From positions 1 to 36,514 of the forward strand of contig NZ_FNWJ01000003.1 in assembly GCF_900108055.1 (NCBI RefSeq): 36,514 nucleotides of DNA. Direction: 5' to 3'. The notes beneath the pieces are model-generated. The model worked only from the letters and a program-made list of their open reading frames with translations, did no database searches and was not told the DNA's origin. Source of the DNA: Thermoleophilum album. Its GTDB lineage: Bacteria; Actinomycetota; Thermoleophilia; Solirubrobacterales; Thermoleophilaceae. The translations under genes were made by a program, and so were the position numbers. The stretch's first letter is position 1. Each line of letters begins with the position of its first letter. This document shows positions 1,496 through 35,936 of this stretch, in pieces.

Positions 1496-2101
1496 TCAGC
1501 TCATCCGCACAAACCCGACGGCATTCCCGCCGCCGCCCGGGTGCACGCGGCGTGCAACCTGGTCCGAGGAGTTGCCTTCGATGGTCTGGATGGACCCGTC
1601 CGGGCGGACGGACTCGACGATGCCCATGTGCTCGTCCCAGATGATCAGATCGCCTGGGCGCGGCGTCACGTTGGGCCCGGCAGGAGTCGCGCGCCCGTTC
1701 CGCTGCGCCCACGCCCACACGTCGTCGACTCGGGCGAAGCCCTGACCGCGGTCGCCGAGAGGCATGCCTGCCTCACGTGCCACCCAGGACGCGAAATACG
1801 CACACCACGGACCGATGGGTCCACCCGGGACGGCCGACCGGTACTCGGCGATCCGGGCCGAGTTGTTCGAGCCCCGCGGCTGTTCCGTCTGGCCGACCTC
1901 GGCCTGCGCCAGCGAGACCATGCGCTGGTTTCCTCCGCCGGGCAGTCCGGACGCAGCAGGCGCTTCGCCCGCCTGGCTGAGGGCCCTGGCGAACGATGTC
2001 GCGCCGGCGGAAGCAGGAGGCGGAGGCGCTGTCGGGGCGAGCGGCGGGGCGAACAGCCGGCTGATCTCGTCGATGCGAACAAGGGTCGAGTCGAGGCTCA
2101 T
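1496..2101 (-). CDS. CHAP-domain peptidoglycan hydrolase (amidase/endopeptidase)
   Basis: 201 aa. The C-terminal ~135 residues form a CHAP (NlpC/P60-like cysteine hydrolase) domain: catalytic Cys in PWCAYFASWVAREAG, then GDLIIWDEHMGIVESV carrying the His, then IEGNSS. CHAP enzymes cut peptidoglycan amide bonds. The N-terminus, SLDSTLVRIDEISRLFAP, is followed by a Pro/Ala linker. It is not a signal peptide, so export would need another route. The ATG at 2101 directly abuts operator 2102-2118, which suggests leaderless or very short-leader transcription under the shared regulator. A flagellar FlgJ-like role is possible from the N-terminal style but unproven. Confidence 0.85.
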   Translation of the reverse strand: MSLDSTLVRIDEISRLFAPPLAPTAPPPPASAGATSFARALSQAGEAPAASGLPGGGNQRMVSLAQAEVGQTEQPRGSNNSARIAEYRSAVPGGPIGPWCAYFASWVAREAGMPLGDRGQGFARVDDVWAWAQRNGRATPAGPNVTPRPGDLIIWDEHMGIVESVRPDGSIQTIEGNSSDQVARRVHPGGGGNAVGFVRMS

Positions 2102-2118
2102 CCCTACAGGTAGTCGGA
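2102..2118. promoter_or_regulatory. 17-bp palindromic operator, site 1
   Basis: CCCTACAGGTAGTCGGA, one mismatch to TCCKAC-N5-GTMGGA. It touches the start codon of the CHAP hydrolase gene on the minus strand. Confidence 0.55.
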
Positions 2119-5281: not shown

Positions 5282-5298
5282 TCCTACGATGTGTCGGA
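5282..5298. promoter_or_regulatory. 17-bp operator, site 3 (exact match)
   Basis: TCCTACGATGTGTCGGA, an exact match to TCCKAC-N5-GTMGGA, between the divergent ABC operon and the small membrane protein gene. The TACGAT inside it could act as a -10 element for the plus strand. An out-of-frame ATG (5299) follows immediately. Confidence 0.65.
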
Positions 5299-7731: not shown

Positions 7732-7748
7732 TCCGACGTGTTGTAGGA
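7732..7748. promoter_or_regulatory. 17-bp operator, site 5 (exact match)
   Basis: TCCGACGTGTTGTAGGA, an exact consensus match, 100 bp upstream of the P1B ATPase start. TAGGAT at its right edge could be a -10 element. Confidence 0.7.
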
Positions 7749-7758
7749 TCGACAGTAC

Positions 7759-7810
7759 GGCTAGCGGGTGTCTGCCGGTTTCGCGGCTAGCGGGTGTCTG
7801 CCGGTTTCGC
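7759..7810 (+). repeat. 26-bp perfect tandem duplication in the P1B ATPase leader
   Basis: Two identical 26-bp units, 7759-7784 and 7785-7810, beginning GGCTAGCGGGTG. They lie between operator site 5 and the ribosome binding site. Each carries a GTG, and the two GTGs are in different frames. Confidence 0.9.
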
Positions 7811-7848
7811 CAGGCAGCCGCGTGGAACGCGACGACAGGAGCCTCGTC

Positions 7849-10308
7849 ATGGAGCCGAAGGAACACGCAACCGCGGTGCTCGATGTCCGCCCGATGCTGC
7901 GGGGATCCGAGAAGGTCACCGTCGAGGCGGTCTTGGGGCGCGTGGACGGCGTGGAAACGGTCGAGGCAAATCCGGTGGCCCAGACGGCCAGCGTGACCTA
8001 CGATCCACACCGCGTTTCGCTCGCGGACCTGCGCCGGGTCGTCGAGGAGTGTGGCTATCACTGCGCGGGCCAGTCGGTGCCGTCGCACATCTGTGATCCC
8101 GAGGCGGAACCCGACCCGATCCAGGGGGACGGAGCGGTGGTGACGACGCCCACTGAGGAGCGGGCCAAGCCCGAGGCGCACGCCGGCCATCGTGGCCACG
8201 GCGAGGCGGCGACACTGCGCTCGCCGGACGAGGTGATGGGTCACGGCGGTCATGGCGCGATGTCGATGGAGGAGATGGTCGCCGACATGCGCAACCGCTT
8301 CCTCGTCGCGGCGCTGCTGGCAATCCCGATCGTGGTCTGGTCGCCGATCGGGCATGACGTCTTCGGCATCGATATCGGCGTGCCCTTCGGGCTGCGTGAA
8401 GACGTCTGGGCGCTGCTGCTGAGTCTCCCGGTGATCTTCTACTCGTGCTCGATCTTCTTCTCGGGCGCTGTGCGTGCGCTCAAGGCGCGCACGCTCGACA
8501 TGATGGTCCTGGTCGCGGTGGCGGTCGGCGCCGGGTGGCTGTACTCGCTCGTTGTCACGCTGACCGGCGGCGGCGAGGTGTTCTACGAGGCGGCGGTCGT
8601 ACTCGCCGCGTTCGTCCTGCTGGGCCATTGGTTCGAGATGCGCGCCCGCGGCGGAGCCAACGACGCGGTGCGGACATTGCTCGACCTCGCTCCGCCGAAG
8701 GCGCTGGTGATCCGCGACGGCGCGACCGTCGAGGTGCCGACGTCCGAGGTCGTCGCCGGCGACCTGCTGCTCGTCCGGCCTGGGTCGAAGATCGCCGTGG
8801 ATGGCGTAGTCGAGGACGGCGAGAGCGAAGTCGACGAGTCGATGGTGACCGGCGAGAGCCTGCCGGTCCACAAGGCGCCGGGCGACGAGGTCATCGGAGG
8901 GACGATCAACGAGAACGGGACGTTGCAGGTCCGTGCGACGAAGATCGGCGCGGACACCGCGCTGGCGCAGATCGTCAAGCTCGTCCAGGAGGCCCAGAAC
9001 TCCAAGGCGCCGGGACAGAAGCTGGCGGATCGGGCGGCGTTCTGGCTCGTCTTCGTCGCGCTCCTTGGCGGGGCGGCCACGTTCGCCGCCTGGATGCTTT
9101 TCAGCGACCGCCCGGCGGCCGACGCCGTGCTGTTCGCGATCACCGTCGTCGTGATCACCTGCCCTGACGCGCTTGGGCTGGCGACGCCGACGGCGATCAT
9201 GATCGGCACCGGCCTCGGCGCCAAGCGCGGGATACTGTTCAAGAACGCGATCGCGCTCGAGACGTCCGCGCACATCGACACGGTGGTGATGGACAAGACC
9301 GGGACGCTGACCAAGGGCGAGCCGGAGGTCACCGACATCGTCGCCGACGGCTTGGACGAGCGTGAGCTGCTGCGATTGGTGGCCGCCGTGGAGCGCTTGT
9401 CCGAGCATCCGCTGGCTGACGCGATCGTGCGCCGATCCGACGAGGCCGGTGTGCCCGAGGTCCCGGCGTCGGACTTCCAGAACGTCCCCGGGCACGGCGC
9501 GATCGCGACCGTCGACGGACACCGCGTCGCGGTCGGCAACCGGCGGTTGATGACCGACCAAGGCGTCGATCTCGGCGAGCTCGGGGCGCGGCGTGATGAG
9601 TTCGCGGCCGGAGGCCGGACGGCGGTGATGGTCGCCGTCGACGGGCGAGCGGCGGGCGTCATCGCGCTAGCCGACGCCGCGCGGCCGACCTCGGTGCAGG
9701 CAGTAGCCGCGCTGCACGATGCCGGCGTGGAGGTCGTCATGCTCAGCGGCGACAACCAGGCGACGGCGGAGCGGATCGCCAGCCAGCTGGGGATCGACAC
9801 GGTCATCGCGGAGGTTCTGCCCGGCGACAAGGCCGCCAAGATCGCCGAGCTCCAGCAGGCGGGACGCAAGGTGGCGATGGTCGGCGACGGCGTCAACGAC
9901 GCCCCGGCGCTCGCCCAGGCAGATCTGGGCATCGCGATCGGTGCCGGGACGGACGTCGCGATCGAGACGGCCGATGTCGTGCTCATGCGCTCCGATCCGC
10001 TGGACGTCGCCACGGCGATGGCGATCGGCCGGGGGACGCTGCGCAAGGAGCGGCAGAACCTCGCGTGGGCGGTCGGCTACAACACGATCGCGCTGCCGAT
10101 CGCGGCCGGCGTCTTCGAGCCTTCACTCGGACTCGTGCTGCGGCCGGAGATCGCGGCGCTCTCGATGTCGGGCTCGAGCCTGATCGTCGCCGTCAACGCC
10201 CTCCTGCTCAAGCGCCTACGCGTCCCGTCGCCCCAGCCCGGAGACGAGGAACCGCCTGCCGCCGAGCCGCCACGTCCCGTGCGCGAGCAGGTCGAGCCGG
10301 CCACATGA
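7849..10308 (+). CDS. heavy-metal (copper-type) P1B ATPase with CPD motif
   Basis: 819 aa from the ATG at 7849, which has AGGAG 7 bases upstream. An in-frame GTG at 7768 lies inside the tandem repeat and is less likely. The P-type core is complete: TGES at 334, C438-P439-D440, DKTGT at 482, SEHPL with H520, and GDGVND at 679. Residues 10-70 fold like an HMA domain but lack the CxxC. They are followed by CGYHCAGQ and a His-rich stretch ([24 protein letters not shown]) before the first membrane segment. Normal CopA has CPC and CopB has CPH; CPD leaves one cysteine in the transport site. Copper export is the likeliest role from the His/Met-rich head and context, but specificity is uncertain. Confidence 0.9.
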
Positions 10309-16703: not shown

Positions 16704-17362
16704 GCCGGCCTCCTCAGAGATGGCGGGACGTAACCGAGCTTGCGATACAGCGGGCAGTGCCCGAGCGCCCCCGTCAGGACCAGGTCGAGGCCGGCAAGCA
16801 TCAGCAGCACCTCGAGCACCGTGCTGACGGCGCCACCCGTCGAAGCGAGCAGGAGCACGCCACCGACGATGGCCACCAGGCCGATGAAGACCCGTGCGAA
16901 GCGCTCGGGCGCAGTGATGTTGACCGTGGGACGCTTCATCTCGGCTCCCCCTCCTTCCGCTGTGTCCGACACAGCGTAGGACTTCCGCGATGCGATGTCA
17001 TCCGGGGTTGGGTGCCGCCCGGGGCGGAGCTTCCGCGGATGCGGGGTGCCATGGTCATCGTGGACGCGGATCGATCCGCGCAGGACGCCGAGCCTGCAGC
17101 GGAATTCGTGGTCGCCGGCCGGCAGGGGACCGAGATCGATGGCCACGTCCTCGAAGGGCGGGAGCATGACGCTCTTGCCGAGGCTCGGGAACACCACGTG
17201 GCTGGAGCAGGCTGCGGTCTCCTCGCGCCGGAGAACGAGCCTAAGGCGCTCGCCGGGTCGGGCGTCGATCACGCTGGGCGAGAAGCTGCCGTTCACCCGG
17301 ACCCACGCGACGCCTTCGCTGTAGCGCGATCGTCCGGGTTGCATGCGGGAGAGGGGACTCAT
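16700..17362 (-). CDS. cupredoxin-like domain in frame with DUF2892/YgaP-like membrane domain
   Basis: One open frame of 220 aa. Residues 15-105 are a cupredoxin-like domain (VRVNGSFSPSVIDARPGERLRL, TAACSSHVVFPSLGKSVMLP, DHEFRCRLGVLRGSIRVHD). It keeps the CS...VVFP and FxC positions but not the usual axial Met of FxCxMGM. Residues 142-220 are a DUF2892-type two-helix domain (MKRPTVNI start, ALGHCPLYRKLGY end). The linker is encoded by operator site 6. The ATG at 16939, 26 bp after that operator, very probably starts an independent 79-aa DUF2892 protein. Whether the long fusion is also made is uncertain. It heads the minus-strand operon of small membrane proteins. Confidence 0.7.
   Translation of the reverse strand: MSPLSRMQPGRSRYSEGVAWVRVNGSFSPSVIDARPGERLRLVLRREETAACSSHVVFPSLGKSVMLPPFEDVAIDLGPLPAGDHEFRCRLGVLRGSIRVHDDHGTPHPRKLRPGRHPTPDDIASRKSYAVSDTAEGGGAEMKRPTVNITAPERFARVFIGLVAIVGGVLLLASTGGAVSTVLEVLLMLAGLDLVLTGALGHCPLYRKLGYVPPSLRRPA
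16965..16981. promoter_or_regulatory. 17-bp operator, site 6 (exact match), inside a reading frame
   Basis: TCCGACACAGCGTAGGA, exact match. It lies within the cupredoxin-DUF2892 frame and 26 bp upstream of the internal ATG at 16939. Confidence 0.65.
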
Positions 17363-20110: not shown

Positions 20111-20174
20111 GGCCGCTGCGTACACTCGCCGCGTGGCGGGGCGTCCCGCCGAAGTCAAGACAACGGAGACCTTC

Positions 20175-21266
20175 GTGGAGAACACCCGACAAGAGGAGAA
20201 GCTCGATGTCCTGCCGTGGCTGGCGACGGCGGGGGTGCTCCTCGCCGTGGTGGCGGTCGCGCTGGCGGCGGTCGCGCTCGTGAGGTCCGGCGACGAGATC
20301 ACGGCCGCATCGACCGGGATGGCCTCGATGTCGGCGGGAGGCATGGATCACATGACCCCGCTGCCTATCGACGGCATCGCGGACCCGCCATCCGATCGTG
20401 GCAACGTCCCGCTCAACGGCGTGCGCCGCGACGGCGCGCTCGAGTTCACCCTCGACGCGCGCCCGGTCTGGTGGCGGATCTTCGGCCGGCAGCGCTTGGC
20501 GGCGTGGGCCTACAACGGCATCGTGCCCGGCCCCGTGATCCGCGTCCGCAACGGTGAGCGCGTCCGCGTGCGCTTCACGAACCGCCTCCCGGAGGCCACG
20601 ACGGTGCACTGGCACGGCGTCGGGGTCCCGAACTCGCAGGACGGCGTTCCCGACGTGACGCAGAAGCCGATCCAGCCGGGCGACACCTACACGTACGAGT
20701 TCACCGCCCGCCCAGCCGGCAACCCGCGTGGGGGCGGCACCTTCCTCTACCACTCGCACGTCGACGAGGACCGGCAGATGTCGGCGGGGCTGGCCGGCGT
20801 GCTCATCATCGACCCGCCCGCCGGCGCCGCGCCCGAGTACGACACCGAGCGCACCGTCGTGGTCTCGGAGTGGACGGCCGACGCCGCGTCCGGACGGACA
20901 CGTGGGGTGATGGAGATGGAGGGCATGCTCCCCAACTTCTTCACCATCAACGGCAAGAGCTTCCCGGACACCGAGCCGATTCGGGTGCGCGCCGGTGAGC
21001 GCGTGCTCCTGCGCCTCGTGAACGCCGGGCAGTTCGAGCACCCGCTGCATCTGCACGGCACCTCGTTCGAGGTCGTGGCGCGCGATGGCCACGCCGTTCG
21101 CCCAGAAGGCCGGCGCGACTCGATCACGCTCGCCAGCGGCGAGCGCGCCGACATCGCGTTCGCGCTGCCGCGTGGGAAGTGGGCGTTCCACTGCCACATC
21201 GGCCACCACCAGACCAACGACGGCGAGGGCCCGGGCGGCCTCTTCACGATCGTCGAAGCCAGCTGA
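20175..21266 (+). CDS. two-domain multicopper oxidase
   Basis: 363 aa from the GTG at 20175 (GGAGA 6 bases upstream); a GTG at 20133 is the alternative. An N-terminal anchor helix is followed by a Met-rich stretch (GMASMSAGGMDHM). Copper ligands are present: HWHG (H145, H147), FLYHSHVDED, HPLHLHG, and H339-C340-H341-IGH-H345. The axial residue five after H345, often Met, is Gly, within a longer loop TNDGEGPGG. Two cupredoxin domains rather than three mark the small two-domain type, which usually works as a trimer. It acts outside the membrane, probably oxidising Cu(I) or phenolic substrates. It is divergent from the two-component genes and followed by a Met/His-rich peptide gene. Confidence 0.9.
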   Translation: MENTRQEEKLDVLPWLATAGVLLAVVAVALAAVALVRSGDEITAASTGMASMSAGGMDHMTPLPIDGIADPPSDRGNVPLNGVRRDGALEFTLDARPVWWRIFGRQRLAAWAYNGIVPGPVIRVRNGERVRVRFTNRLPEATTVHWHGVGVPNSQDGVPDVTQKPIQPGDTYTYEFTARPAGNPRGGGTFLYHSHVDEDRQMSAGLAGVLIIDPPAGAAPEYDTERTVVVSEWTADAASGRTRGVMEMEGMLPNFFTINGKSFPDTEPIRVRAGERVLLRLVNAGQFEHPLHLHGTSFEVVARDGHAVRPEGRRDSITLASGERADIAFALPRGKWAFHCHIGHHQTNDGEGPGGLFTIVEAS

Positions 21267-22328: not shown

Positions 22329-23534
22329 CTACAGGTAGCCGAACGGATCCACGGGCGACCCGTTGACGCGCACCTCGAAGTGGAGGTGCGCGCCGAACGA
22401 GTTGCCCGTGTTGCCGACGTAGCCCATCACCTGTCCCTGGCGCACCGACGCCCCTTGACTCGTCCCCAGCCGGGACTGGTGGGCGTAGCAGGTGGAGAGG
22501 CTGCCGGTGTGCTGGATGCAGGTGTAGTTTCCGTAACCGCCCATCCAGCCGGCGATGACGACACGGCCGGAGTCGGCGGCGCGGATCGGAGTGTCCTCCG
22601 GGGCGCTGATGTCGATGCCGGCGTGCTGGCGTCCCCAGCGCGGGCCGAAGGGCGAGGTCAGCGGGCCGTTGATCGGCCAGATCAGCCGGCCCGAGCCGCG
22701 GCGGATCGGTGCCGCGGGCGGGTTGCCGGGCACCGGAGGGGAGGCGGATGTCCGCTCCTGGGCGGCGCGGCGAAGGGCCGCCTCCACGCGCGCCTGCTCG
22801 GCCTCGAGGGCACGCAGGTCCTCCTGGGCCCGGCGCCGGCTGCTGCGGACGCGCGCGAGTGTCGCCTGGCGCCGGTCGCGGGCCTCCTGCAGGTTCGTGC
22901 GCCTGCGCACCACACGTTTCCTGACCGCCGCGATCTCGTTGCGGCGCGCGAGGATGGTCTGCGCGGCGTCTTCGGCACGGCGCTCGAGCGTCAGGAGCTG
23001 CTCGGCCTGTCGCTGCGCCCGGGCCTTCGCCGTTCGCACCCGGCCGACGATCCGTTGATCTTGGTCGGAGATGCGATCGAGGAACTCGACCCGTTCGAGG
23101 AGGTCGCCGAACCCGTCGGCGTTGAGCACCACCGTGAGGACGTCAGGCTCATCCGTCTTGTAGGCCTCGACGAGCCGCGCGGCCAGGGCGTCCTCGGCGA
23201 CAGCGAGCTCCTCCCTCAGCTCCGCCAGGCGCCTACGCGCGCGCTCGAGACGGTCGCGGACATCCAGCAGCTCGGTGCGCTTCTCATCGAGCGTCGCCTG
23301 GAGGCGCTGCTGTCGACGTTGCAGACCCCTGACCTCGCCTTGGAGGCCGCGGATCTTCTCGTTCTGTGCCGCGATCGTCTGCGTGAGCACGCCTTCGGTC
23401 TGCCGCTTGCGCTCGACCTTTGCGCGCTGGCGATCGATCCGTTCGTCGAGCGGAGCCGACAGTCCCGGCAGCGGGAGTACGAGATAGGCCGATAGGCCCA
23501 AGGTGATGGGAAGCCAGAAGCGTCGTCTCATCAT
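22329..23534 (-). CDS. EnvC-like M23 peptidase with coiled coil
   Basis: 401 aa. A signal sequence (FWLPITLGLSAYLVLPLPGLSA) leads into a long coiled coil (about residues 28-250, rich in Arg/Glu/Gln/Leu heptads). A C-terminal M23/LytM domain follows: HAGIDISAPEDTPI, YAHQSRLG and HLHFEVRVNG, with the zinc ligands in place. Such proteins cut or regulate cutting of peptidoglycan cross-links at division. The gene is preceded on its own strand by a c-di-AMP riboswitch and operator site 9. The ATG at 23534 has only a weak ribosome binding site. Confidence 0.9.
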   Translation of the reverse strand: MMRRRFWLPITLGLSAYLVLPLPGLSAPLDERIDRQRAKVERKRQTEGVLTQTIAAQNEKIRGLQGEVRGLQRRQQRLQATLDEKRTELLDVRDRLERARRRLAELREELAVAEDALAARLVEAYKTDEPDVLTVVLNADGFGDLLERVEFLDRISDQDQRIVGRVRTAKARAQRQAEQLLTLERRAEDAAQTILARRNEIAAVRKRVVRRRTNLQEARDRRQATLARVRSSRRRAQEDLRALEAEQARVEAALRRAAQERTSASPPVPGNPPAAPIRRGSGRLIWPINGPLTSPFGPRWGRQHAGIDISAPEDTPIRAADSGRVVIAGWMGGYGNYTCIQHTGSLSTCYAHQSRLGTSQGASVRQGQVMGYVGNTGNSFGAHLHFEVRVNGSPVDPFGYL

Positions 23535-23776: not shown

Positions 23777-23793
23777 TCCGACGCTTTGTAGGC
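23777..23793. promoter_or_regulatory. 17-bp operator, site 10
   Basis: TCCGACGCTTTGTAGGC, one mismatch. It directly precedes the plus-strand riboswitch. TAGAGT one base upstream could be a -10 element. Confidence 0.62.
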
Positions 23794-23938: not shown

Positions 23939-25072
23939 TTGCGTCCTACGCAAATGCTCGGTCGTGGCGCCGTGGTGATGATCGGCGTGGCGACGCTCGT
24001 TCCCGCGGCTGCCGCCAGTCCCACCGGTGGCGCTGGGATCCCCGATGACCCGCGCGTACGGGCTCTCAGTTGCGTCGCTACGGCGCAGCGCCCTTGCCCC
24101 GCAGATGGAGCGCTCGTCCGCGGCGGCAAGGTGAAGGTCGAGGGATCGGAACTGCAGGCATCCACCGCCCTCATCTTCCGCGGTCGTCGCGGCCGTCGCG
24201 ACGACGTCCGCGTGAAGCCGCGAAAGGTGGAAGAGGGAGGAATCGAGGCGAACGTGCCGCGGAGAGCGCGCAGCGGGCCGGTCGTTGTCGTGAACCGCTT
24301 CGGCGCCACCACTCGAGCGGCTCGGCACGTGGCGGTCAAGGCCGCTGCTCGGCCCGAGCCGATCGACGCCGCGCCAGGCGGCAAGTTCTTCTTCGCGGGG
24401 CGATCCAAGCCGACCTTCACGTTCCAGGTAGGCCGAGCCGTGACGGCGCAGGTGGAGCTCGTTCGCGAATCGGATGGCGCGGTCGTGCGAGCGTGGGACG
24501 TCCCGGCCGAGCCCGGTCGCCCGGCCGAGATCCGCTGGGACGGAAAAACCGTCGACGGGGGCGTGCAGAATGGCCGCTACCGCTTCCGCATCGCAGGCGA
24601 CGCAGCCACTGCGGCGAGCCCCGCCCCCGACGCGCAGGCCGACTTCGCCTACTTCGACCACGTCTTCCCGATCCGCGGGCGTCACAACATGGGCTACACC
24701 GACACGAACAACTTCGGTGGCGGTCGCAACCACAAGGGCCAGGACATGTTCGCTGCTTGCGGCACGCGCCTGGCGGCAGCCCGCGGCGGTCGCGTGAAGT
24801 TCGCCGGGTATCACAGCGCCGCCGGCAACTACGTCGTCATCGATGGCGCCGGCACGGACGTCGACTACGTCTACATGCACTTGCGCTCGGCCCCGCTCGT
24901 CAGGACCGGGCAGCGTGTGTTCACCGGGCAGCAGATCGGTGAAGTCGGAGAAACCGGACGCGCAACCGGCTGCCACCTGCACTTCGAGATGTGGTCGGCG
25001 CCCGGCTGGTATGACGGCGGGGCGGCCTTCGACCCGCTCCCGCATCTACAGGCCTGGGACGCGTACAGCTGA
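23939..25072 (+). CDS. secreted M23 peptidase with FlgD-Ig-like domain
   Basis: 377 aa from the TTG at 23939. This start is supported because GAGAGG lies exactly 8 bases upstream, the same spacing as GAGAGG to ATG in the homologous gene at 34617. A signal peptide is followed by two beta-rich regions, the second FlgD-Ig-like (PAEIRWDGKTVDGGVQNGRYRF). The C-terminal M23 domain has HKGQDMFAACGTRL, YMHLRSAPL and CHLHFEMWSAPGW. It cleaves peptidoglycan peptides. It is under riboswitch copy 2 and operator site 10, and divergent from another M23 gene. Confidence 0.92.
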   Translation: MRPTQMLGRGAVVMIGVATLVPAAAASPTGGAGIPDDPRVRALSCVATAQRPCPADGALVRGGKVKVEGSELQASTALIFRGRRGRRDDVRVKPRKVEEGGIEANVPRRARSGPVVVVNRFGATTRAARHVAVKAAARPEPIDAAPGGKFFFAGRSKPTFTFQVGRAVTAQVELVRESDGAVVRAWDVPAEPGRPAEIRWDGKTVDGGVQNGRYRFRIAGDAATAASPAPDAQADFAYFDHVFPIRGRHNMGYTDTNNFGGGRNHKGQDMFAACGTRLAAARGGRVKFAGYHSAAGNYVVIDGAGTDVDYVYMHLRSAPLVRTGQRVFTGQQIGEVGETGRATGCHLHFEMWSAPGWYDGGAAFDPLPHLQAWDAYS

Positions 25073-28949: not shown

Positions 28950-29375
28950 CTATTGGACCGTCACGTCCATGAGCAGCACGTCCTCCACCAGCACGTCGGT
29001 CTCCGCGCGGAGCCGCTTGACGATGCGCTTCTTCAGCCGCCGGCGCCCGCTACGCCGGATCAGCGAGCTGGCCGGCGTCCCCGTGATGACGTCAGTGACG
29101 ATGTCGCGCACGAGGGCCTCCTGCTCGAGGGGGCCGAAGCCCTCGGGCGGCTTTCCCTCCTCCTCGGGGAAAACGGTGTCCTCCAAGAGGAGGAGCGAGA
29201 CGCTGACCTTCGCGAAGCGGTCCCCGTCGAGGTTGACGACGAACTCGCGCGGCAGCACGTAGCCGAACCCATCGACCTTGTGCTCCGGCTCGGCCGGCTT
29301 CGCCAGCGCGAACTTGTAGGCGCCGCCGCCCAGGGCAGCGACGAGCGCGACGGTGATCACGACTCGCTTCTTCAT
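28950..29375 (-). CDS. FliL-like membrane protein, not in a flagellar operon
   Basis: 141 aa. One N-terminal membrane helix precedes a periplasmic domain with FVVNLDGDRFAKVSVSLLLLE and a C-terminal helix-strand region (RIVKRLRAETDVLVEDVLLMDVTVQ), the FliL pattern. FliL associates with the flagellar stator, but no flagellar gene is nearby. GGAGG precedes the ATG at a good distance, inside a small hairpin. Operator site 12 lies 101 bp upstream of the start, so it appears to be a regulon member. It may be a stator-independent paralogue. Confidence 0.75.
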   Translation of the reverse strand: MKKRVVITVALVAALGGGAYKFALAKPAEPEHKVDGFGYVLPREFVVNLDGDRFAKVSVSLLLLEDTVFPEEEGKPPEGFGPLEQEALVRDIVTDVITGTPASSLIRRSGRRRLKKRIVKRLRAETDVLVEDVLLMDVTVQ

Positions 29376-29476: not shown

Positions 29477-29493
29477 TCCGACAGTACGTAGGA
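29477..29493. promoter_or_regulatory. 17-bp operator, site 12 (exact match)
   Basis: TCCGACAGTACGTAGGA, exact match, followed by CTTG. It lies between the stop of the 63-aa gene and the FliL-like gene. Confidence 0.68.
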
Positions 29494-29697: not shown

Positions 29698-29714
29698 CCC
29701 TACTCTATGTAGGA
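29698..29714. promoter_or_regulatory. 17-bp operator, site 13, between two divergent start codons
   Basis: CCCTACTCTATGTAGGA; its core CCTAC-N5-GTAGG is a perfect inverted repeat. Start codons lie 3 bp away on the minus strand (29694) and 2 bp away on the plus strand (29717). Confidence 0.65.
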
Positions 29715-29716
29715 GT

Positions 29717-30628
29717 ATGTCGCTCCTCGCCTCTGGGCGGCCGCGCCCGTCCGACGGAACCGCCCCGGTCGTGCAGCTCTCACAGGGTTTGGCCATAGCG
29801 CTCGTCGCGGCGGCGCTCGGATACGCGCTCCACCACCTTCCGTTCCTCGAAGACCACGCGATGCTCAGCGCTGCGCTTTCCGTCGCGGCCGCAGGAGTGG
29901 CCGCTGTCGCGCTCGGCGCGGTGGCCGTCCCCAGCCGGCGCCGTCTCCTTCCTGTGGTCGTCTTCGCGCCGGGGCGTACCAGCCCCGTTCAGCCCCTGGA
30001 ACGCCGAGATATCGACTTCTGCGTCGCCCTGCACCGAGAGGCACTCGGGCATGGATTCTTCGTCGAGCTCGGTGATCGCTTCATGCGGGCGTACTACCGG
30101 ACGTTCCTCGACTCGCCCCACGCTGTCGCGATCAAGACGGACGTTGGCGGGCAGGCAGTCGGCTTTCTCGTTGGCGCGACACGGGCGCGCGCTCACCGGC
30201 GCTGGACGCTCCGACATCGCGGCGCCACCCTGGCGTTGCTCGCCGCAGCCGGCCTCGTCGGTCACCCGCGAGTCGCGGTGCGTTTCGTCCGCACGAGACT
30301 CGCCCGTTACCTGCGAACGTGGCGTCGGCATCGGGTGAACGAATCGGCACAGCGGTCGGTTGTCGCGCCGGACCCGGCTGTCCTGACGCACGTTGCCGTC
30401 GTACCCGGCGCGCGCGGCTCCGGTGCCGGCCAACAGCTCGTCGAGGCGTTCACCGACCACGCGCGGCGTGCGGGTGCCGACCGTGCGCTGCTGACCACGC
30501 TCGCCGGCGAAGGTGGCGCCGGCGGCTTCTATGAGCGTCTCGGCTGGCGCAAGTCGGGAGTTCACACGACCGCCGATGGGCATCGCGTGGAGGAATGGAC
30601 GTTCGCCCTCGAGGTCGCCATCCCGTGA
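29717..30628 (+). CDS. GNAT acetyltransferase with N-terminal membrane segments
   Basis: 303 aa from the ATG at 29717. Two hydrophobic segments (about 20-36 and 44-70) anchor a cytoplasmic GNAT domain at about residues 90-300. The acetyl-CoA loop is LTHVAVVPGARGSGAGQQLV, and GGAGGFYERLGWRKSG is the C-terminal motif. The substrate is unknown. An anchored GNAT near wall genes could modify an envelope precursor or a membrane protein. A GTG at 29771 is an alternative start if the abutting operator argues against leaderless translation. The stop overlaps the next gene's GTG. Confidence 0.78.
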   Translation: MSLLASGRPRPSDGTAPVVQLSQGLAIALVAAALGYALHHLPFLEDHAMLSAALSVAAAGVAAVALGAVAVPSRRRLLPVVVFAPGRTSPVQPLERRDIDFCVALHREALGHGFFVELGDRFMRAYYRTFLDSPHAVAIKTDVGGQAVGFLVGATRARAHRRWTLRHRGATLALLAAAGLVGHPRVAVRFVRTRLARYLRTWRRHRVNESAQRSVVAPDPAVLTHVAVVPGARGSGAGQQLVEAFTDHARRAGADRALLTTLAGEGGAGGFYERLGWRKSGVHTTADGHRVEEWTFALEVAIP

Positions 30629-31624: not shown

Positions 31625-32422
31625 ATGGACATTGCCGTCATCACCATCGGAATCGACCCGACGATCGAGCTCGGGCCGATCACGCTCGCGTGGCATGGGA
31701 TCGGGATTGCCGCTGGCATCGCGGTGGGCGCGGTGTTCGCGCGGCGATATGCGAGCGAGCGCGACCTCGATCGCGAGGCGCTTCTCAGCGCCGTGATCGT
31801 CATCGCCCTGGCCGGGATCGTCGGCGCACGGTTGTTTTTCCTCTTAGAGAACGACCCGGGCGCGCTCCTCCGCCCGGCCGACTGGTTCGGCACCAACGGC
31901 TTTGCGTTCTACGGCGGGATGATCTTCGGAACCGCAGCCGCTGCGCTGTTTCTGTGGCGGACCCGGCTCGGACTCCGCTATCTCGACGCCATCGCGGCGG
32001 GCTTTCCGATCGGCATGGCCGTCGGCCGCGTCGGTGATGTCATCAACGGCGAGCACTACGGTCCGCCTAGCGACCTACCGTGGGCCGTCCGCAACACCCA
32101 CCCCGACGCGGACGTTCCGAGCACAGCCATGGCCTACCACTCCGGTGGGCTGTACGAGGTCGTGCTCGCCCTTGTCATGTTCGCGGTCATCTGGCCGCTG
32201 CGACACCGTTTCCAGAAGCAGCTGACGCTGCTATGGACCGTCGTCGGCGCCTACGGCTTGGGCCGCTTCGTCATGTTCTTCTACCGCGCCGACAGCGAGG
32301 ACGCCGCTCTGGGTCTCAACGGCGCGCAGTGGACAAGTGTTGCGCTGGTCGGCATCGCGGCGGTCGGGATCGCGTGGGCGAAACTTCGGAAACGAGGCAG
32401 TTCGGCGTCCGACAGACCGTAG
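31625..32422 (+). CDS. lgt: prolipoprotein diacylglyceryl transferase
   Basis: 265 aa with about seven membrane segments. Signature regions are GARLFFLLENDPG, GFAFYGGMIFG and GMAVGRVGDVINGEHYGPP (the Lgt signature, usually GRxGNFxNxE; here Asp replaces Asn). The enzyme moves diacylglyceryl from phosphatidylglycerol to the lipobox Cys. It is shorter than many actinobacterial Lgt proteins and may be an accessory copy. It begins 13 bp after the lipoprotein gene, with a weak ribosome binding site. The stop lies inside operator site 14 just before the blaI-type gene. Confidence 0.88.
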   Translation: MDIAVITIGIDPTIELGPITLAWHGIGIAAGIAVGAVFARRYASERDLDREALLSAVIVIALAGIVGARLFFLLENDPGALLRPADWFGTNGFAFYGGMIFGTAAAALFLWRTRLGLRYLDAIAAGFPIGMAVGRVGDVINGEHYGPPSDLPWAVRNTHPDADVPSTAMAYHSGGLYEVVLALVMFAVIWPLRHRFQKQLTLLWTVVGAYGLGRFVMFFYRADSEDAALGLNGAQWTSVALVGIAAVGIAWAKLRKRGSSASDRP

Positions 32423-32424
32423 TA
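32408..32424. promoter_or_regulatory. 17-bp operator, site 14, in front of the BlaI-type repressor
   Basis: TCCGACAGACCGTAGTA, one mismatch, 16 bp upstream of the repressor ATG and overlapping the lgt stop. This is the main reason for assigning the motif to this repressor (autoregulation). Confidence 0.62.
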
Positions 32425-32440: not shown

Positions 32441-32842
32441 ATGGCGGCCCCCAAGAAGGAACTCGACTTCAGCGGCGAGCTGCAGAATGCCGTGATGGCG
32501 GCGGTGTGGGAACTGGGGGAGGCGAAGGTCGACGACGTCCGCAACTTGCTCCCAAGGCGACGGCGCCCGGCGTACAACACGGTCCAGACCGTGATGAACC
32601 GGCTCGTGGAGCGCGGGCTCCTCAAACGTACGCGCCAGGGCAACGCCTACGTGTACAGCGCGAAGCTTGCAGAGGCCGAGTACCTGGCGCGTACGATCCA
32701 GACGCGCCTCGCCGGCGCGTCCCCCAGTGCACGGAGGGCCGTTCTCGTCAATCTCGTCGGCGAGCTCGAGAGCGACGACCTCGACGAGCTCGCTCGCTAC
32801 GCAAACCGCATCAGGCGGGCACGGGGGAAAGCCGGGTCATGA
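32441..32842 (+). CDS. BlaI/MecI/CopY-family transcriptional repressor
   Basis: 133 aa. The winged helix reads LQNAVMAAVWELGEAKVDDV, then AYNTVQTVMNRLVERGLLKRTRQGNAYVYSA, the family's hallmark recognition helix and wing. The C-terminal dimerisation helices follow. There is no CopY-type CxC copper hook, so it is not a direct copper sensor of that kind. Release from DNA is normally through cleavage by a partner protease, and the next gene overlaps it (ATGA) and encodes one. BlaI-family operators are CTACA/TGTAG palindromes; the 17-bp motif here has the same half-site core. Confidence 0.93.
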   Translation: MAAPKKELDFSGELQNAVMAAVWELGEAKVDDVRNLLPRRRRPAYNTVQTVMNRLVERGLLKRTRQGNAYVYSAKLAEAEYLARTIQTRLAGASPSARRAVLVNLVGELESDDLDELARYANRIRRARGKAGS

Positions 32843-33816
32843 CGGTGCAGCTGGCGGCCGCCGCGGTGCTCGCCGGCGCCCTCTCGCTACCCCACATTCT
32901 CCCGCTCCGCATCGTCGCGCCCACCACCGCGGCGACGATCTGGTTCGCCGCGCTGGCGCTGAGGGCGCTGACGGCGATCGGGCTTGCCGCCTTCGTGTTG
33001 CTCTACGTACCGCAGACCGGCGCGTTCCGGGCGGTCGCGGAGCGGTGCTGGCACGCGATCCTCCCGCTCTTGACAGACCATCTCGGCCCGTCAGCCCACC
33101 CGCTCGCTGACGCGGCGGTGATCTTGCCCGCGATGGTCCTCGCGACCTCGGCGGTCTGGGTCGCCTGCGGGCTCATCCGTGCGGCAGTAGCCGTGGACCT
33201 TCATATCCGGCGGCGCGCACGCGCTCGTGGACCGCTGGGGAGCACCGTCGTCGAGGACAACGACGTCGTCGTCGCGGTCGCCGGCATCGGTCGTGGGCGG
33301 ATCGTCGTCTCCGATACGGCTCTCGGCGTGCTTGATGCCGAGGAGCTTGAGGCGAGCGTTACGCACGAGCTCGGCCACATCAAGCGGCGGCACCGGCCGC
33401 TGCTCGTCCTTGGGTCGCTTCTCGCCGCGATCGGCCGCTGGCTCCCGGGCACGGCAGCGGCCGAGCGCGAGCTCGCGTTCAGCCTCGAGCGCGATGCCGA
33501 CGAGTTCGCGGTCTCACGCACCGCCAACCCGCTCGCGCTCGCAAGTGCGATCTGCAAGGCCGCTCAGGCGCGGGGCGCGAGCGCCATCGTTCCGGCCCTC
33601 GGAGGACGTGGCCCTGTCGGTCAACGCCTGGACGACCTGCTTGCCGGCGGCCGCCGGCGAGGCGGTCGCGGGCTGGAGCGTGCCGCGCGAGCGCTGGCCC
33701 TGCTCATGCTTGTGCTCGTCGGTCTCGTCGCCGTCACGATGCCTAGCTGGGCGCTGGCAGCGCCCAGCAAGCAGTCGGTCGACGCGACGCTCACAAGCTG
33801 TCACGACCACGCCTAG
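32839..33816 (+). CDS. BlaR1/M56 (M48-like) membrane metalloprotease
   Basis: 325 aa. About three N-terminal membrane helices precede a cytoplasmic protease with VTHELGHIKRRH (H176, E177, H180) and the downstream Glu region LERDADEFAVSR. A last helix (LALLMLVLVGLVAV) is followed by a short tail ending SCHDHA. Unlike true BlaR1 there is no large penicillin-binding sensor, so the signal must be read by the helices or the tail. The Cys-His-Asp-His end is a possible metal site, which is inference. The gene is translationally coupled to the repressor, which it presumably cleaves. Confidence 0.88.
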   Translation: MTVQLAAAAVLAGALSLPHILPLRIVAPTTAATIWFAALALRALTAIGLAAFVLLYVPQTGAFRAVAERCWHAILPLLTDHLGPSAHPLADAAVILPAMVLATSAVWVACGLIRAAVAVDLHIRRRARARGPLGSTVVEDNDVVVAVAGIGRGRIVVSDTALGVLDAEELEASVTHELGHIKRRHRPLLVLGSLLAAIGRWLPGTAAAERELAFSLERDADEFAVSRTANPLALASAICKAAQARGASAIVPALGGRGPVGQRLDDLLAGGRRRGGRGLERAARALALLMLVLVGLVAVTMPSWALAAPSKQSVDATLTSCHDHA

Positions 33817-33853: not shown

Positions 33854-34321
33854 TTACGGCTTCGCGCCTCGAGCCGTTCTAGAGGCCGACGGGTCGATAG
33901 GACAACCGCTCTCCAATAGCGCCAGGCGCCGCCGCACCGCGACGACGGCGAGCGTGACGGCCGTGATGCCGAGCAGCGGCTGAATCGGCTCGAAGTACGT
34001 CAGCGCGCCAGACACGCCGAGCGTCGCGACGACGAGCTTGTTGCAGATCGGGCAGCCGATCGCGAAGGTCCCGAGCAGGCCACCGCCGGTCGCCTGCGCC
34101 GTGCCGCGTGCATCGCGGCGCGCTACGACGTAGGTGGCGATCAGCACGCCAAGAGCGGCGCTCAGAATCGGCCACAGCACCAGGTCGAGCGTGCGGACTG
34201 CGGTCATCCGGTCAAACCACGGGTTCGGCAACACGTCCGTCGGAATGCCGATCGCCGCTGCTGCGAGGACCGTCGCGGGGACCGCGGCGAGCAACAGCCT
34301 GGCATTCAGCAGGAGCGTCAC
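33854..34321 (-). CDS. four-helix membrane protein with CPxC motif
   Basis: 155 aa from the GTG at 34321. There are four hydrophobic segments. A conserved-looking FAIGCPICNKLVVATLGVSGAL places a CPxC pair at a membrane boundary, suggesting thiol-disulfide chemistry or metal binding. The C-terminus carries another Cys (ESGCPIDP). Operator site 15 lies 23 bp upstream. TAGAAT is 7 bases before the GTG, so a leaderless transcript is plausible. The family name is not known to me. Confidence 0.7.
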   Translation of the reverse strand: MTLLLNARLLLAAVPATVLAAAAIGIPTDVLPNPWFDRMTAVRTLDLVLWPILSAALGVLIATYVVARRDARGTAQATGGGLLGTFAIGCPICNKLVVATLGVSGALTYFEPIQPLLGITAVTLAVVAVRRRLALLESGCPIDPSASRTARGAKP

Positions 34322-34344: not shown

Positions 34345-34361
34345 TCCGACGGACTGTAGGA
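34345..34361. promoter_or_regulatory. 17-bp operator, site 15 (exact match)
   Basis: TCCGACGGACTGTAGGA, exact match, upstream of the CPxC membrane protein. On the minus strand TACAGT inside it could be a -10 element. Confidence 0.68.
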
Positions 34362-34452: not shown

Positions 34453-34469
34453 ACCGACATTTTGTAGGA
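34453..34469. promoter_or_regulatory. 17-bp operator, site 16
   Basis: ACCGACATTTTGTAGGA, one mismatch. It directly precedes riboswitch copy 3, in the same arrangement as site 10 with copy 2. GATAAGGT just upstream may be a -10 element. Confidence 0.62.
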
Positions 34470-34616: not shown

Positions 34617-35651
34617 ATGTCACAGCCGGCCGTGCGCCACGCGGTCGTACTTGCCGTCGTGGCGGTGTTGACTGGAGCCGGTTCCGCCTACGGCGCCTTC
34701 GGAGACCGCCCGCTCGAGTCGGGCGACCGCGGCCAAGACGTCCGCGTCCTGCAGTCCTGGCTCACGCGGCTCGGTTTCCCGACGACGGTCGATGGCGCGT
34801 TCGGGGAGCTCACGGCCCGTGCCGTCTATCGCTACGAACGCGAGAACGGACTCAAGCGCGACCGCAAAGTCAGCCGCGCACAGGCCCGCCGCATGCGTCG
34901 ACAGGTCGAGGGCGAGGGCGCCGGCGCCCGAAGGACGGGTGACGACGAGGAAGAGCGCGTGTTCACCTTCGGGGAACGGGCGCTGCGCCGTGGCGATCGC
35001 GGCCGTGACGTGCGGGTCCTGCAGTCGTGGCTGGCTCGGCTTGGCATTCCGACCGAGGTCGACGGCGCGTTCGGCGCTCGAACCGAGGCGAACGTGAGGA
35101 GCTACGACGAGTGGAACGGGTTGCGGGTGAACGGTGAGGTGAGCCGGTCCCAGGCCCGGTTGATGCGCCGCCAGGTCGAAGAGGGCATGGATCTTCCTGC
35201 GACGCCGCCACCAGGTGGCGGTGACGCCAAGGTCGAGACGAGCGGATCGCACGTCTTTCCAGTCCAGGGCACGCACCGCTACGGCGACGGTTTGGGTGCC
35301 GGGCGCGGTCACCGCGGCGTCGACGTCTTCGCAGAGTGCCGCACTCCGCTCGTCGCTGCGCAGGGCGGCGAGGTCGACTACGCCGGATACAACTCGTCAG
35401 CCGGCTACGACGCCGTCATCAACGGTGCTGAGTCCGGGCAGGACTACATCTACATGCATATGTCCTCTGCGCCGCTGGTCAAGGCCGGCGACACCGTGCA
35501 GACCGGGCAGCAGATCGGAACCGTCGGCGAGACGGGCAATGCGAGTGGATGCCATCTCCACTTCGAGTTGTGGTCGGGGCCCGGCTGGTACAAGGGGGGC
35601 GACTTCCTCGACCCCCTGCCTGCTCTCCGCTCTTGGGATGGCCAGCAGTAG
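34617..35651 (+). CDS. secreted M23 peptidase with two peptidoglycan-binding repeats
   Basis: 344 aa. A signal peptide precedes two PG_binding_1 domains (about 33-85 and 125-175; each has GDRGxDVRVLQSWLxRLG and VDGAFG). A Pro/Gly linker leads to an M23 domain with GHRGVDVFAECRTPL, YMHMSSAPLV and CHLHFELWSGPGW. Its M23 half closely resembles that of 23939-25072, including GAGCxHLHFE-type ends and the shared operator/riboswitch leader, so the two are paralogues that kept their control region. It binds and cuts peptidoglycan. Confidence 0.93.
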   Translation: MSQPAVRHAVVLAVVAVLTGAGSAYGAFGDRPLESGDRGQDVRVLQSWLTRLGFPTTVDGAFGELTARAVYRYERENGLKRDRKVSRAQARRMRRQVEGEGAGARRTGDDEEERVFTFGERALRRGDRGRDVRVLQSWLARLGIPTEVDGAFGARTEANVRSYDEWNGLRVNGEVSRSQARLMRRQVEEGMDLPATPPPGGGDAKVETSGSHVFPVQGTHRYGDGLGAGRGHRGVDVFAECRTPLVAAQGGEVDYAGYNSSAGYDAVINGAESGQDYIYMHMSSAPLVKAGDTVQTGQQIGTVGETGNASGCHLHFELWSGPGWYKGGDFLDPLPALRSWDGQQ

Positions 35652-35696: not shown

Positions 35697-35936
35697 TCAG
35701 AGACACGGCGGGCCGGCGCATCCACGCGCCGACCCGCCATGGTTTGCGCGCTCTTGAGCTATGCGAGCCATCTCGATGGCGCCCTCTTGGTGGGCCGTCA
35801 TGTCGGCGATGAACGCGGCGTCGGCTGAGTTGCCCGGAGCGGTGGTGTCGTCATCGCCCCAGCCGGTGGCCATAGCGCCCACGGCAATAACGGCAAGCGC
35901 CGCGAGTAGCAGCGCAAGCCAGGTCTTCGTTTTCAC
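35697..35936 (-). pseudogene. truncated DUF305-family gene
   Basis: 79 aa from the GTG at 35936. A signal helix (TWLALLLAALAVIAVGAMA) is followed by DAAFIADMTAHQEGAIEMARIAQERANH, the first metal-binding part of DUF305 (FIxxMxxHHxxAIxMA; here HQ instead of HH). The family normally continues for another 60-100 residues with a second His/Met segment. Here the frame runs instead into the hairpin at 35707-35738 and ends (GGSARGCAGPPCL). Probably a truncated gene fused to the terminator of the M23 gene. Confidence 0.65.
35707..35738. terminator. strong hairpin, likely terminator of the M23 gene
   Basis: GGCGGGCCGGCGC (35707-35719) pairs with GCGCCGACCCGCC (35726-35738), 13 bp with one mismatch, 56 bp after the M23 stop. 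On the plus strand ATGGTTTG follows, with only a short T-run. Confidence 0.6.

What the first reader, a model, noticed from the sequence alone, without database searches (positions are those of the whole stretch)
32839..33816. BlaR1-like protease without a beta-lactam sensor but with a Cys-His-Asp-His tail
The M56/M48-type protease partner of the repressor has HELGH but only a ~25-residue segment after its last membrane helix, ending SCHDHA. In BlaR1/MecR1 this position holds a large penicillin-binding sensor. If the tail faces outside, it could be a minimal metal or redox sensor, which would fit a regulon rich in copper genes. The repressor itself lacks the CopY CxC hook, so sensing by the protease is the logical alternative.
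Basis: inference. Interest (0 to 1): 0.6.

Follow-up and report, generated by a model that had tools for sequence, protein, structure and literature searches.

The report
Copper-linked BlaR1-type protease with cysteine tail
An actinobacterium makes a relative of the penicillin-sensing protease BlaR1 in which the large drug-sensing part is replaced by two never-changing cysteines that face outside the cell, and it sits among copper-handling and cell-wall genes that share one DNA switch, so it probably senses copper or thiol stress rather than an antibiotic.

Summary
Residues 1-325 (32839-33816) form a BlaR1-fold protease with HELGH, directly downstream of a BlaI-type repressor, with a ~20-residue tail ending SCHDHA and no sensor domain. 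The CHxH end is not conserved, but its cysteine is: in 38 distinct orthologues exactly one Cys lies 1-7 residues from the C-terminus, in an otherwise variable tail. A second Cys (C70) is invariant in the outer loop between helices 2 and 3, the loop that contacts the sensor in S. aureus BlaR1. The positive-inside rule and the BlaR1 match put both outside. The repressor has no Cys or His, so it is not a CopY.

I found an operator, CCTAC-N5-GTAGG (63 copies in 499 kb around the gene pair, 0 in 330 kb of neutral sequence), before the repressor, copper ATPases, peptidoglycan hydrolases and others. In this genome 9 of 14 sites fall in the window. Copper genes cluster with the pair (CopA 14/36 loci, neutral 0/20). 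Two distant actinobacterial lineages carry repressor, Cys-rich-tail protease, cupredoxins and CopA in one run.

Best reading: a BlaR1-like switch with a two-cysteine exoplasmic metal or thiol sensor. Copper specificity is inferred. No earlier description was found.

The parts
32839..33816 (+). BlaR1-like (M56/M48 superfamily) membrane zinc protease, 325 aa
32441..32842 (+). BlaI/Penicillinase_R-type repressor, 133 aa, no Cys and no His; only one in the genome
33364..33378 (+). HELGH zinc site (residues 176-180); third ligand E217 at 33487-33489
33004..33108 (+). outer loop EL1 (residues 56-90) with H72, H81, H87
33046..33048 (+). codon of C70, invariant exoplasmic Cys in EL1
   Evidence: 37/37 in A4, all of A5
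33748..33813 (+). C-terminal exoplasmic tail (residues 304-325) ending SCHDHA
33799..33801 (+). codon of C321, invariant tail Cys
   Evidence: 38/38 distinct sequences
32409..32423 (+). imperfect operator CCGACAGACCGTAGT, 18 bp before the repressor start
31625..32422 (+). second Lgt (prolipoprotein diacylglyceryl transferase) of the genome, directly upstream of the repressor
7733..7747 (+). operator CCGACGTGTTGTAGG before CopA
7768..10308 (+). CopA-type copper P-type ATPase with HMA domain
34346..34360 (+). operator CCGACGGACTGTAGG before the GCPICNK membrane protein gene
33854..34321 (-). small membrane protein with GCPICNK motif, conserved neighbour (8/36 loci)
34454..34468 (+). operator CCGACATTTTGTAGG before the M23 gene 34617-35651
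34617..35651 (+). M23 peptidase with peptidoglycan-binding domains
29699..29713 (+). perfect operator CCTACTCTATGTAGG before the GNAT gene (29714 or 29717 to 30628)
29478..29492 (+). operator CCGACAGTACGTAGG before the FliL-like gene 28950-29375 (-)
23778..23792 (+). operator CCGACGCTTTGTAGG between divergent M23 genes 22329-23534 (-) and 23939-25072 (+)
2103..2117 (-). operator CCGACTACCTGTAGG before the CHAP-domain gene 1496-2101 (-)
5283..5297 (-). operator CCGACACATCGTAGG before the ABC transporter ATPase gene (-)
16966..16980 (+). operator-like site CCGACACAGCGTAGG with no assigned target
20133..21266 (+). multicopper oxidase (copper island; no operator found directly before it)

Best explanation
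The pair is a BlaR1/BlaI-type transmembrane proteolytic switch whose outside sensor is reduced to two cysteines (with histidines nearby): C70 in the EL1 loop between helices 2 and 3, and C321 near the end of the tail after helix 4. Shown here: the gene pair, the BlaR1 fold, the invariance of both cysteines, and a shared operator CCTAC-N5-GTAGG before copper-export and cell-envelope genes. Predicted from sequence rules: both cysteines are outside. Inferred: a thiophilic metal, most likely Cu(I), or a change in thiol redox state alters the C70-C321 contact. As in BlaR1, where displacement of EL1 moves helix 3, this activates the cytoplasmic HExxH site, which cleaves the repressor and opens the regulon (CopA, GCPICNK protein, M23 and CHAP hydrolases, GNAT, FliL-like protein, probably the second Lgt).
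For: Tail Cys in 38/38 and C70 in 37/37 orthologues, other tail columns variable. Positive-inside pattern and BlaR1 fold. EL1 contacts the sensor and signals through helix 3 in BlaR1 (PMC9834060). Repressor adjacent in 36/36 loci and without Cys/His. Operator: 63 sites in 499 kb, none in 330 kb neutral sequence, one strict spacer; 9 of the 14 sites of the genome lie in the window. CopA 14/36 and DUF305 13/36 against 0/20 and 0/20. Two distant lineages carry repressor, Cys-tail M56, cupredoxins and CopA together.
Against: No metal binding, cleavage or DNA binding has been measured. The His residues are not invariant. The operator in the window is mostly the CCGAC variant and the repressor's own site is imperfect. 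The regulon also holds many cell-wall genes, so the signal could be wall damage. Loci are related by descent, so neighbourhood p-values are optimistic. An unrelated five-helix M56 type also lies near CopA (7/17), so copper context is not special to this tail. Tail confidence in the model is low.
Confidence: 0.6

Rival explanations
1. Thiol-redox sensor without metal: C70 and C321 form a disulfide in the exoplasm, and its formation or loss (oxidative, reductive or folding stress, with copper acting only as an oxidant) switches the protease.
For: Two lone invariant thiols, one in each outer segment; His not invariant. CcdA/DsbD-type and VKOR genes near some relatives.
Against: His close to the tail Cys in 31/38, H87 in 95% and the CopA/DUF305/cupredoxin context point to metal.
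Confidence: 0.2
2. Structural disulfide: C70-C321 only holds the tail to EL1, and the real signal is cell-wall or lipoprotein damage felt by another part of the protein or by a partner.
For: The operator precedes many peptidoglycan hydrolases (M23, CHAP) and sometimes Lgt.
Against: No other conserved exoplasmic element is seen in EL1 or tail apart from H87 and nearby residues; copper genes cluster with the pair, and copper itself impairs lipoprotein acylation in E. coli (PMC6538781).
Confidence: 0.13
3. The tail is cytoplasmic or is removed, and plays no part in sensing.
For: Tail sequence is variable and low confidence in the model.
Against: Positive-inside pattern, BlaR1 fold, and invariance of the tail Cys.
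Confidence: 0.04
4. The repressor itself senses copper like CopY and the protease is incidental.
For: BlaI and CopY are related; the CopY/TcrY model scores 57 bits.
Against: The repressor has 0 Cys and 0 His and 36/36 relatives have no Cys in the aligned part. CopY depends on CxC motifs (PMC7253601).
Confidence: 0.02

Closest known systems
BlaR1/MecR1 with BlaI/MecI (Staphylococcus aureus, Bacillus licheniformis)
   Same: Adjacent BlaI-type repressor, HExxH...ExxxD protease core in the cytoplasm, four membrane helices, EL1 loop between helices 2 and 3
   Different: No penicillin-binding sensor; a ~20-residue tail with one Cys; an invariant Cys in EL1; different operator and a copper/envelope regulon
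BlaR (Rv1845c)/BlaI (Rv1846c) of Mycobacterium tuberculosis
   Same: BlaR without extracellular sensor domain, paired with BlaI; signal unknown (PMC5473688)
CopY/TcrY (CopR-CopY) copper repressors of Firmicutes
   Same: Related winged-helix repressor controlling CopA; dyad operator
   Different: Here the repressor has no CxC and no Cys or His at all; operator is CCTAC-N5-GTAGG, not KACANNTGTA (PMC7253601); a protease is present
NlpE-CpxAR of Escherichia coli
   Same: Functional analogy only: outside sensing of copper and lipoprotein stress linked to envelope genes (PMC6538781)
   Different: Lipoprotein plus two-component kinase; no homology

Membership tests
BlaR1/MecR1 sensor-protease | HExxH plus ExxxD gluzincin core with BlaR1 fold | tested here: met
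   HELGH, E217xxxD221; Foldseek probability 1.00, VIA Z up to 11.8 to BlaR1
BlaR1/MecR1 sensor-protease | Pfam Peptidase_M56 above its curated cut-off | tested here: not met
   21.8 bits against a cut-off of 31
BlaR1/MecR1 sensor-protease | Adjacent BlaI-type repressor | tested here: met
   ATGA overlap in the window; 36/36 loci
BlaR1/MecR1 sensor-protease | C-terminal extracellular penicillin-binding sensor | tested here: not met
   No such domain; only ~20 residues after the last helix
BlaR1/MecR1 sensor-protease | N-out/C-out four-helix topology | tested here: met
   Sequence-based only: four helices and positive-inside pattern
BlaR1/MecR1 sensor-protease | Autocleavage and signal-triggered cleavage of the repressor | not testable with these tools
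   Needs biochemistry
CopY/TcrY copper repressor | C-terminal CxC metal hook in the repressor | tested here: not met
   0 Cys in 133 residues; 0 of 36 relatives have Cys in the aligned part
CopY/TcrY copper repressor | cop-box operator KACANNTGTA | tested here: not met
   The shared dyad has a strict 5-base spacer, CCTAC-N5-GTAGG
CopY/TcrY copper repressor | NCBIfam CopY_TcrY equivalog cut-off | tested here: not met
   57.2 bits against 121.95
HtpX (M48) quality-control protease | HtpX equivalog score | tested here: not met
   15-22 bits against cut-offs of 275-369; a separate HtpX-like gene exists in the genome

The most novel reading that the evidence does not exclude
Sensor-domain-free BlaR-type proteases of Actinomycetota are a widespread class of exoplasmic copper/thiol sensors: an EL1 cysteine plus cysteines just after helix 4 (in a short tail, or in the loop before a fifth helix) replace the penicillin-binding domain, and each subtype reads its own operator to drive copper and envelope-repair regulons. 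This would also suggest what 'sensorless' BlaR proteins such as that of M. tuberculosis respond to.
Probability: 0.4. Interest if true: 0.8.

Novelty: new variant of a known kind. Interest (0 to 1): 0.63.

Why it matters
What BlaR-like proteases without a penicillin sensor respond to is an open question (for M. tuberculosis BlaR it is stated as unknown, PMC5473688). Two invariant exoplasmic cysteines give a concrete two-mutation test, and the operator defines the regulon. If copper is the signal, this would be proteolytic transmembrane sensing of exoplasmic copper, different from the cytoplasmic CopY and CsoR sensors and from sensor kinases. It would also tie copper export to peptidoglycan hydrolases and a second Lgt, in line with copper impairing lipoprotein acylation in E. 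coli (PMC6538781).

Tried and rejected
CHxH as a conserved motif: rejected, only the Cys is conserved. Haem-c attachment (CxxCH) as the general mechanism: three relatives in another family of the class have CxxCH tails, and members of that family sit in a cytochrome c maturation cluster, but their sisters have CALSH, TCHA or GCAGSAACH instead, so it is not a conserved haem site. Five-helix M56 loci as a negative control for copper context failed as a neutral control, because they also lie near CopA (7/17); I therefore added 20 arbitrary regions of the same genomes. My first count of operators before CopA was wrong because the query was trimmed by 100 residues; redone. Yinghuangia (L139) was considered as a covariation case (two tail Cys) but dropped: one case, and a Cys remains near the start of its loop. 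Conservation of a BlaI-like cleavage site (N101-F102 equivalent): the pattern was found in only half of the repressors and the first residue varies, so inconclusive. Plasmid searches: no match. Literature searches found nothing on a metal-sensing M56 protease, in an open-access library only.

Full report
What is there. The ORF at 32839-33816 (+) starts with ATG inside the ATGA overlap with the repressor gene 32441-32842 and encodes 325 residues ending TSCHDHA. It has HELGH (176-180) and E217xxxD221. Pfam sees M48 (E 3.6e-7) and, below its cut-off, M56. AlphaFold2 on an alignment of 33 relatives gives mean pLDDT 86.8, with long helices 2-20, 28-59, 88-126 and 277-306 plus a protease core; the last ~15 residues are low confidence. 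Foldseek's best matches are the S. aureus BlaR1 chains at probability 1.00, though E-values are only 0.012-0.03. VIA-align gives Z 9.0-11.8 over 188-212 residues, with ZMPSTE24/Ste24 of the same protease superfamily close behind. So this is a BlaR1-like core without the sensor.

Topology. Arg+Lys average 3.7 in the segment after helix 3 and 3.2 in the segment before helix 4, against 0.65 in the 56-90 loop and 0.78 in the tail (37 sequences). With HExxH in the cytoplasm and four membrane helices, the loop and the tail are both outside, as in BlaR1, which is N-out/C-out (PMC9834060). This is prediction from sequence, not mapping.

Conservation. A profile search of 232 genomes of the order gave 37 full-length close matches, clearly separated from all other hits (E 1e-66 or better against 1e-22 or worse). 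A scan of named genomes returned Thermoleophilaceae MAGs, Solirubrobacter species, Svornostia abyssi, and single MAGs labelled Chloroflexota and Gemmatimonadetes, so the window most likely comes from Solirubrobacterales (Thermoleophilia). In 38 distinct sequences there is exactly one Cys in the last 26 residues, always 1-7 from the end; a His lies within 4 residues of it in 31. The 37 rows of the alignment fall in 25 clusters at 60% identity. Other tail columns have majority fractions mostly between 0.1 and 0.5 (the two next to the helix reach 0.51 and 0.70). C70 in the outer loop is 37/37; H87 95%, H81 70%, H72 68%. The CHxH end itself is not shared.

A structural reason to pair C70 with the tail. 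In BlaR1 the same loop (EL1, between helices 2 and 3) occupies the binding groove of the sensor, and its displacement moves helix 3 and the protease (PMC9834060). Here the loop and the segment after helix 4 each keep one invariant thiol. A C70-C321 disulfide or a shared metal ion would be a minimal version of the loop-sensor contact.

The repressor. It is BlaI-type (Penicillinase_R E 2.5e-26), the only one in the genome, with no Cys and no His; 36 relatives have no Cys in the aligned part. A CopY-type metal switch in the repressor is therefore practically excluded.

The operator and regulon. Upstream regions of the repressor in relatives share a dyad. CCTAC-N5-GTAGG occurs 63 times in 499 kb around the gene pair, with 0-2 occurrences at every other spacer from 0 to 14. 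It occurs 0 times in 330 kb of arbitrary regions of the same order and 0 times in 269 kb around an unrelated M56 type. In this genome CCKACN5GTAGG has 14 sites, 9 of them in the 36.5-kb window (binomial p about 2e-13; the pattern was chosen after seeing window matches, so this p is optimistic). In relatives and the window, sites stand before the repressor (20/35), M23 hydrolases (9/11 and 8/16), a methyltransferase (9/9), the GCPICNK membrane protein (6/8), FliL (4/5), GNAT (3/3), CHAP (3/3) and Lgt (4/12), and before CopA in the window (-28) and in several relatives. In the window, sites stand before CopA, the GCPICNK gene, three M23 genes, CHAP, FliL, GNAT and an ABC ATPase; the site before the repressor itself is imperfect.

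Copper context. In regions reaching about 8 kb on each side where contigs allow: CopA 14/36, DUF305 13/36, Lgt 8/36; arbitrary regions 0/20 for each (Fisher p 0.0007, 0.001, 0.02). The loci are related by descent, so these p-values are optimistic. Two lineages outside the class carry repressor, M56 with a Cys-rich short tail, DsbD/cupredoxin proteins and CopA in one run (L210, L212); these are independent of the window's clade. An unrelated M56 type in the same order, with a probable fifth helix, is also near CopA (7/17). Many of its members have one Cys in EL1 and one just before the fifth helix, and its regions show ACTAC-N5-GTAGT-like dyads. That weakens the claim that the tail form is special for copper, but fits the idea that M56 proteins with exoplasmic cysteines serve copper in general.

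Mechanism and alternatives. Best supported: an exoplasmic Cys-pair metal or thiol sensor that activates cleavage of the repressor. The copper step is inferred from gene context. The main rival is a purely redox (disulfide) sensor; the next is a structural disulfide with a wall-damage signal. Wall and Lgt genes do not argue against copper, since copper impairs lipoprotein acylation in E. coli (PMC6538781), and the genome has a second, separate Lgt.

Known or new. BlaR proteins without the sensor are already known in mycobacteria, where the signal is stated as unknown (PMC5473688); in M. tuberculosis blaR was required for growth on haem iron in a transposon screen (PMC7058343). I found no description of an invariant exoplasmic Cys pair, of this operator, or of a copper regulon under a BlaI-M56 pair, within an open-access library only. 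I rate it a new variant of a known kind.

Noticed in passing
L036, L039, L042, L044 (relatives in another family of the class): The repressor-M56 pair lies directly after a cytochrome c maturation cluster (CcmE, CcmF, CcmH, CcmA, CcmB, CcmC), with CcdA downstream; three proteins of this group have a haem-attachment-like CxxCH in the outer tail (CSACH, CSTCH, CAACH).
   Followed up: partly
L009, L018, L024, L041: In a further family the M56 tail carries two C-x3-H motifs (e.g. CYTQH...CESEHPSH) and in several loci the pair faces a polyferredoxin-like membrane protein gene.
   Followed up: partly
L218-L234: An unrelated M56 type of the same order has a probable fifth helix; many members have one Cys in EL1 and a QSCM-like motif before the last helix, ACTAC-N5-GTAGT-like dyads nearby, and CopA or CcdA neighbours.
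   Followed up: partly
window 31625-32422 and G000:C1:1132516-1133220: The genome has two Lgt genes; one is next to the repressor, the other elsewhere on the chromosome.
   Followed up: no
L085, L086, L087, L094, L097, L100, L102, L103, L106: A SAM-dependent methyltransferase of unknown role has the operator 16-42 bp before its start in 9 of 9 copies near the pair.
   Followed up: no
window 35697-35936: A short DUF305 match covers only part of the family profile (positions 92-126 of 151), so the gene may be truncated or frameshifted near the window end.
   Followed up: no
window 16966-16980: An operator-like site without an obvious target gene within 300 bp.
   Followed up: no
L032:5653-7068 (-): A mercuric-reductase-like flavoprotein ending in a Cys pair (SCCAA) lies next to the repressor-M56 pair, so mercury is another conceivable signal.
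   Followed up: no
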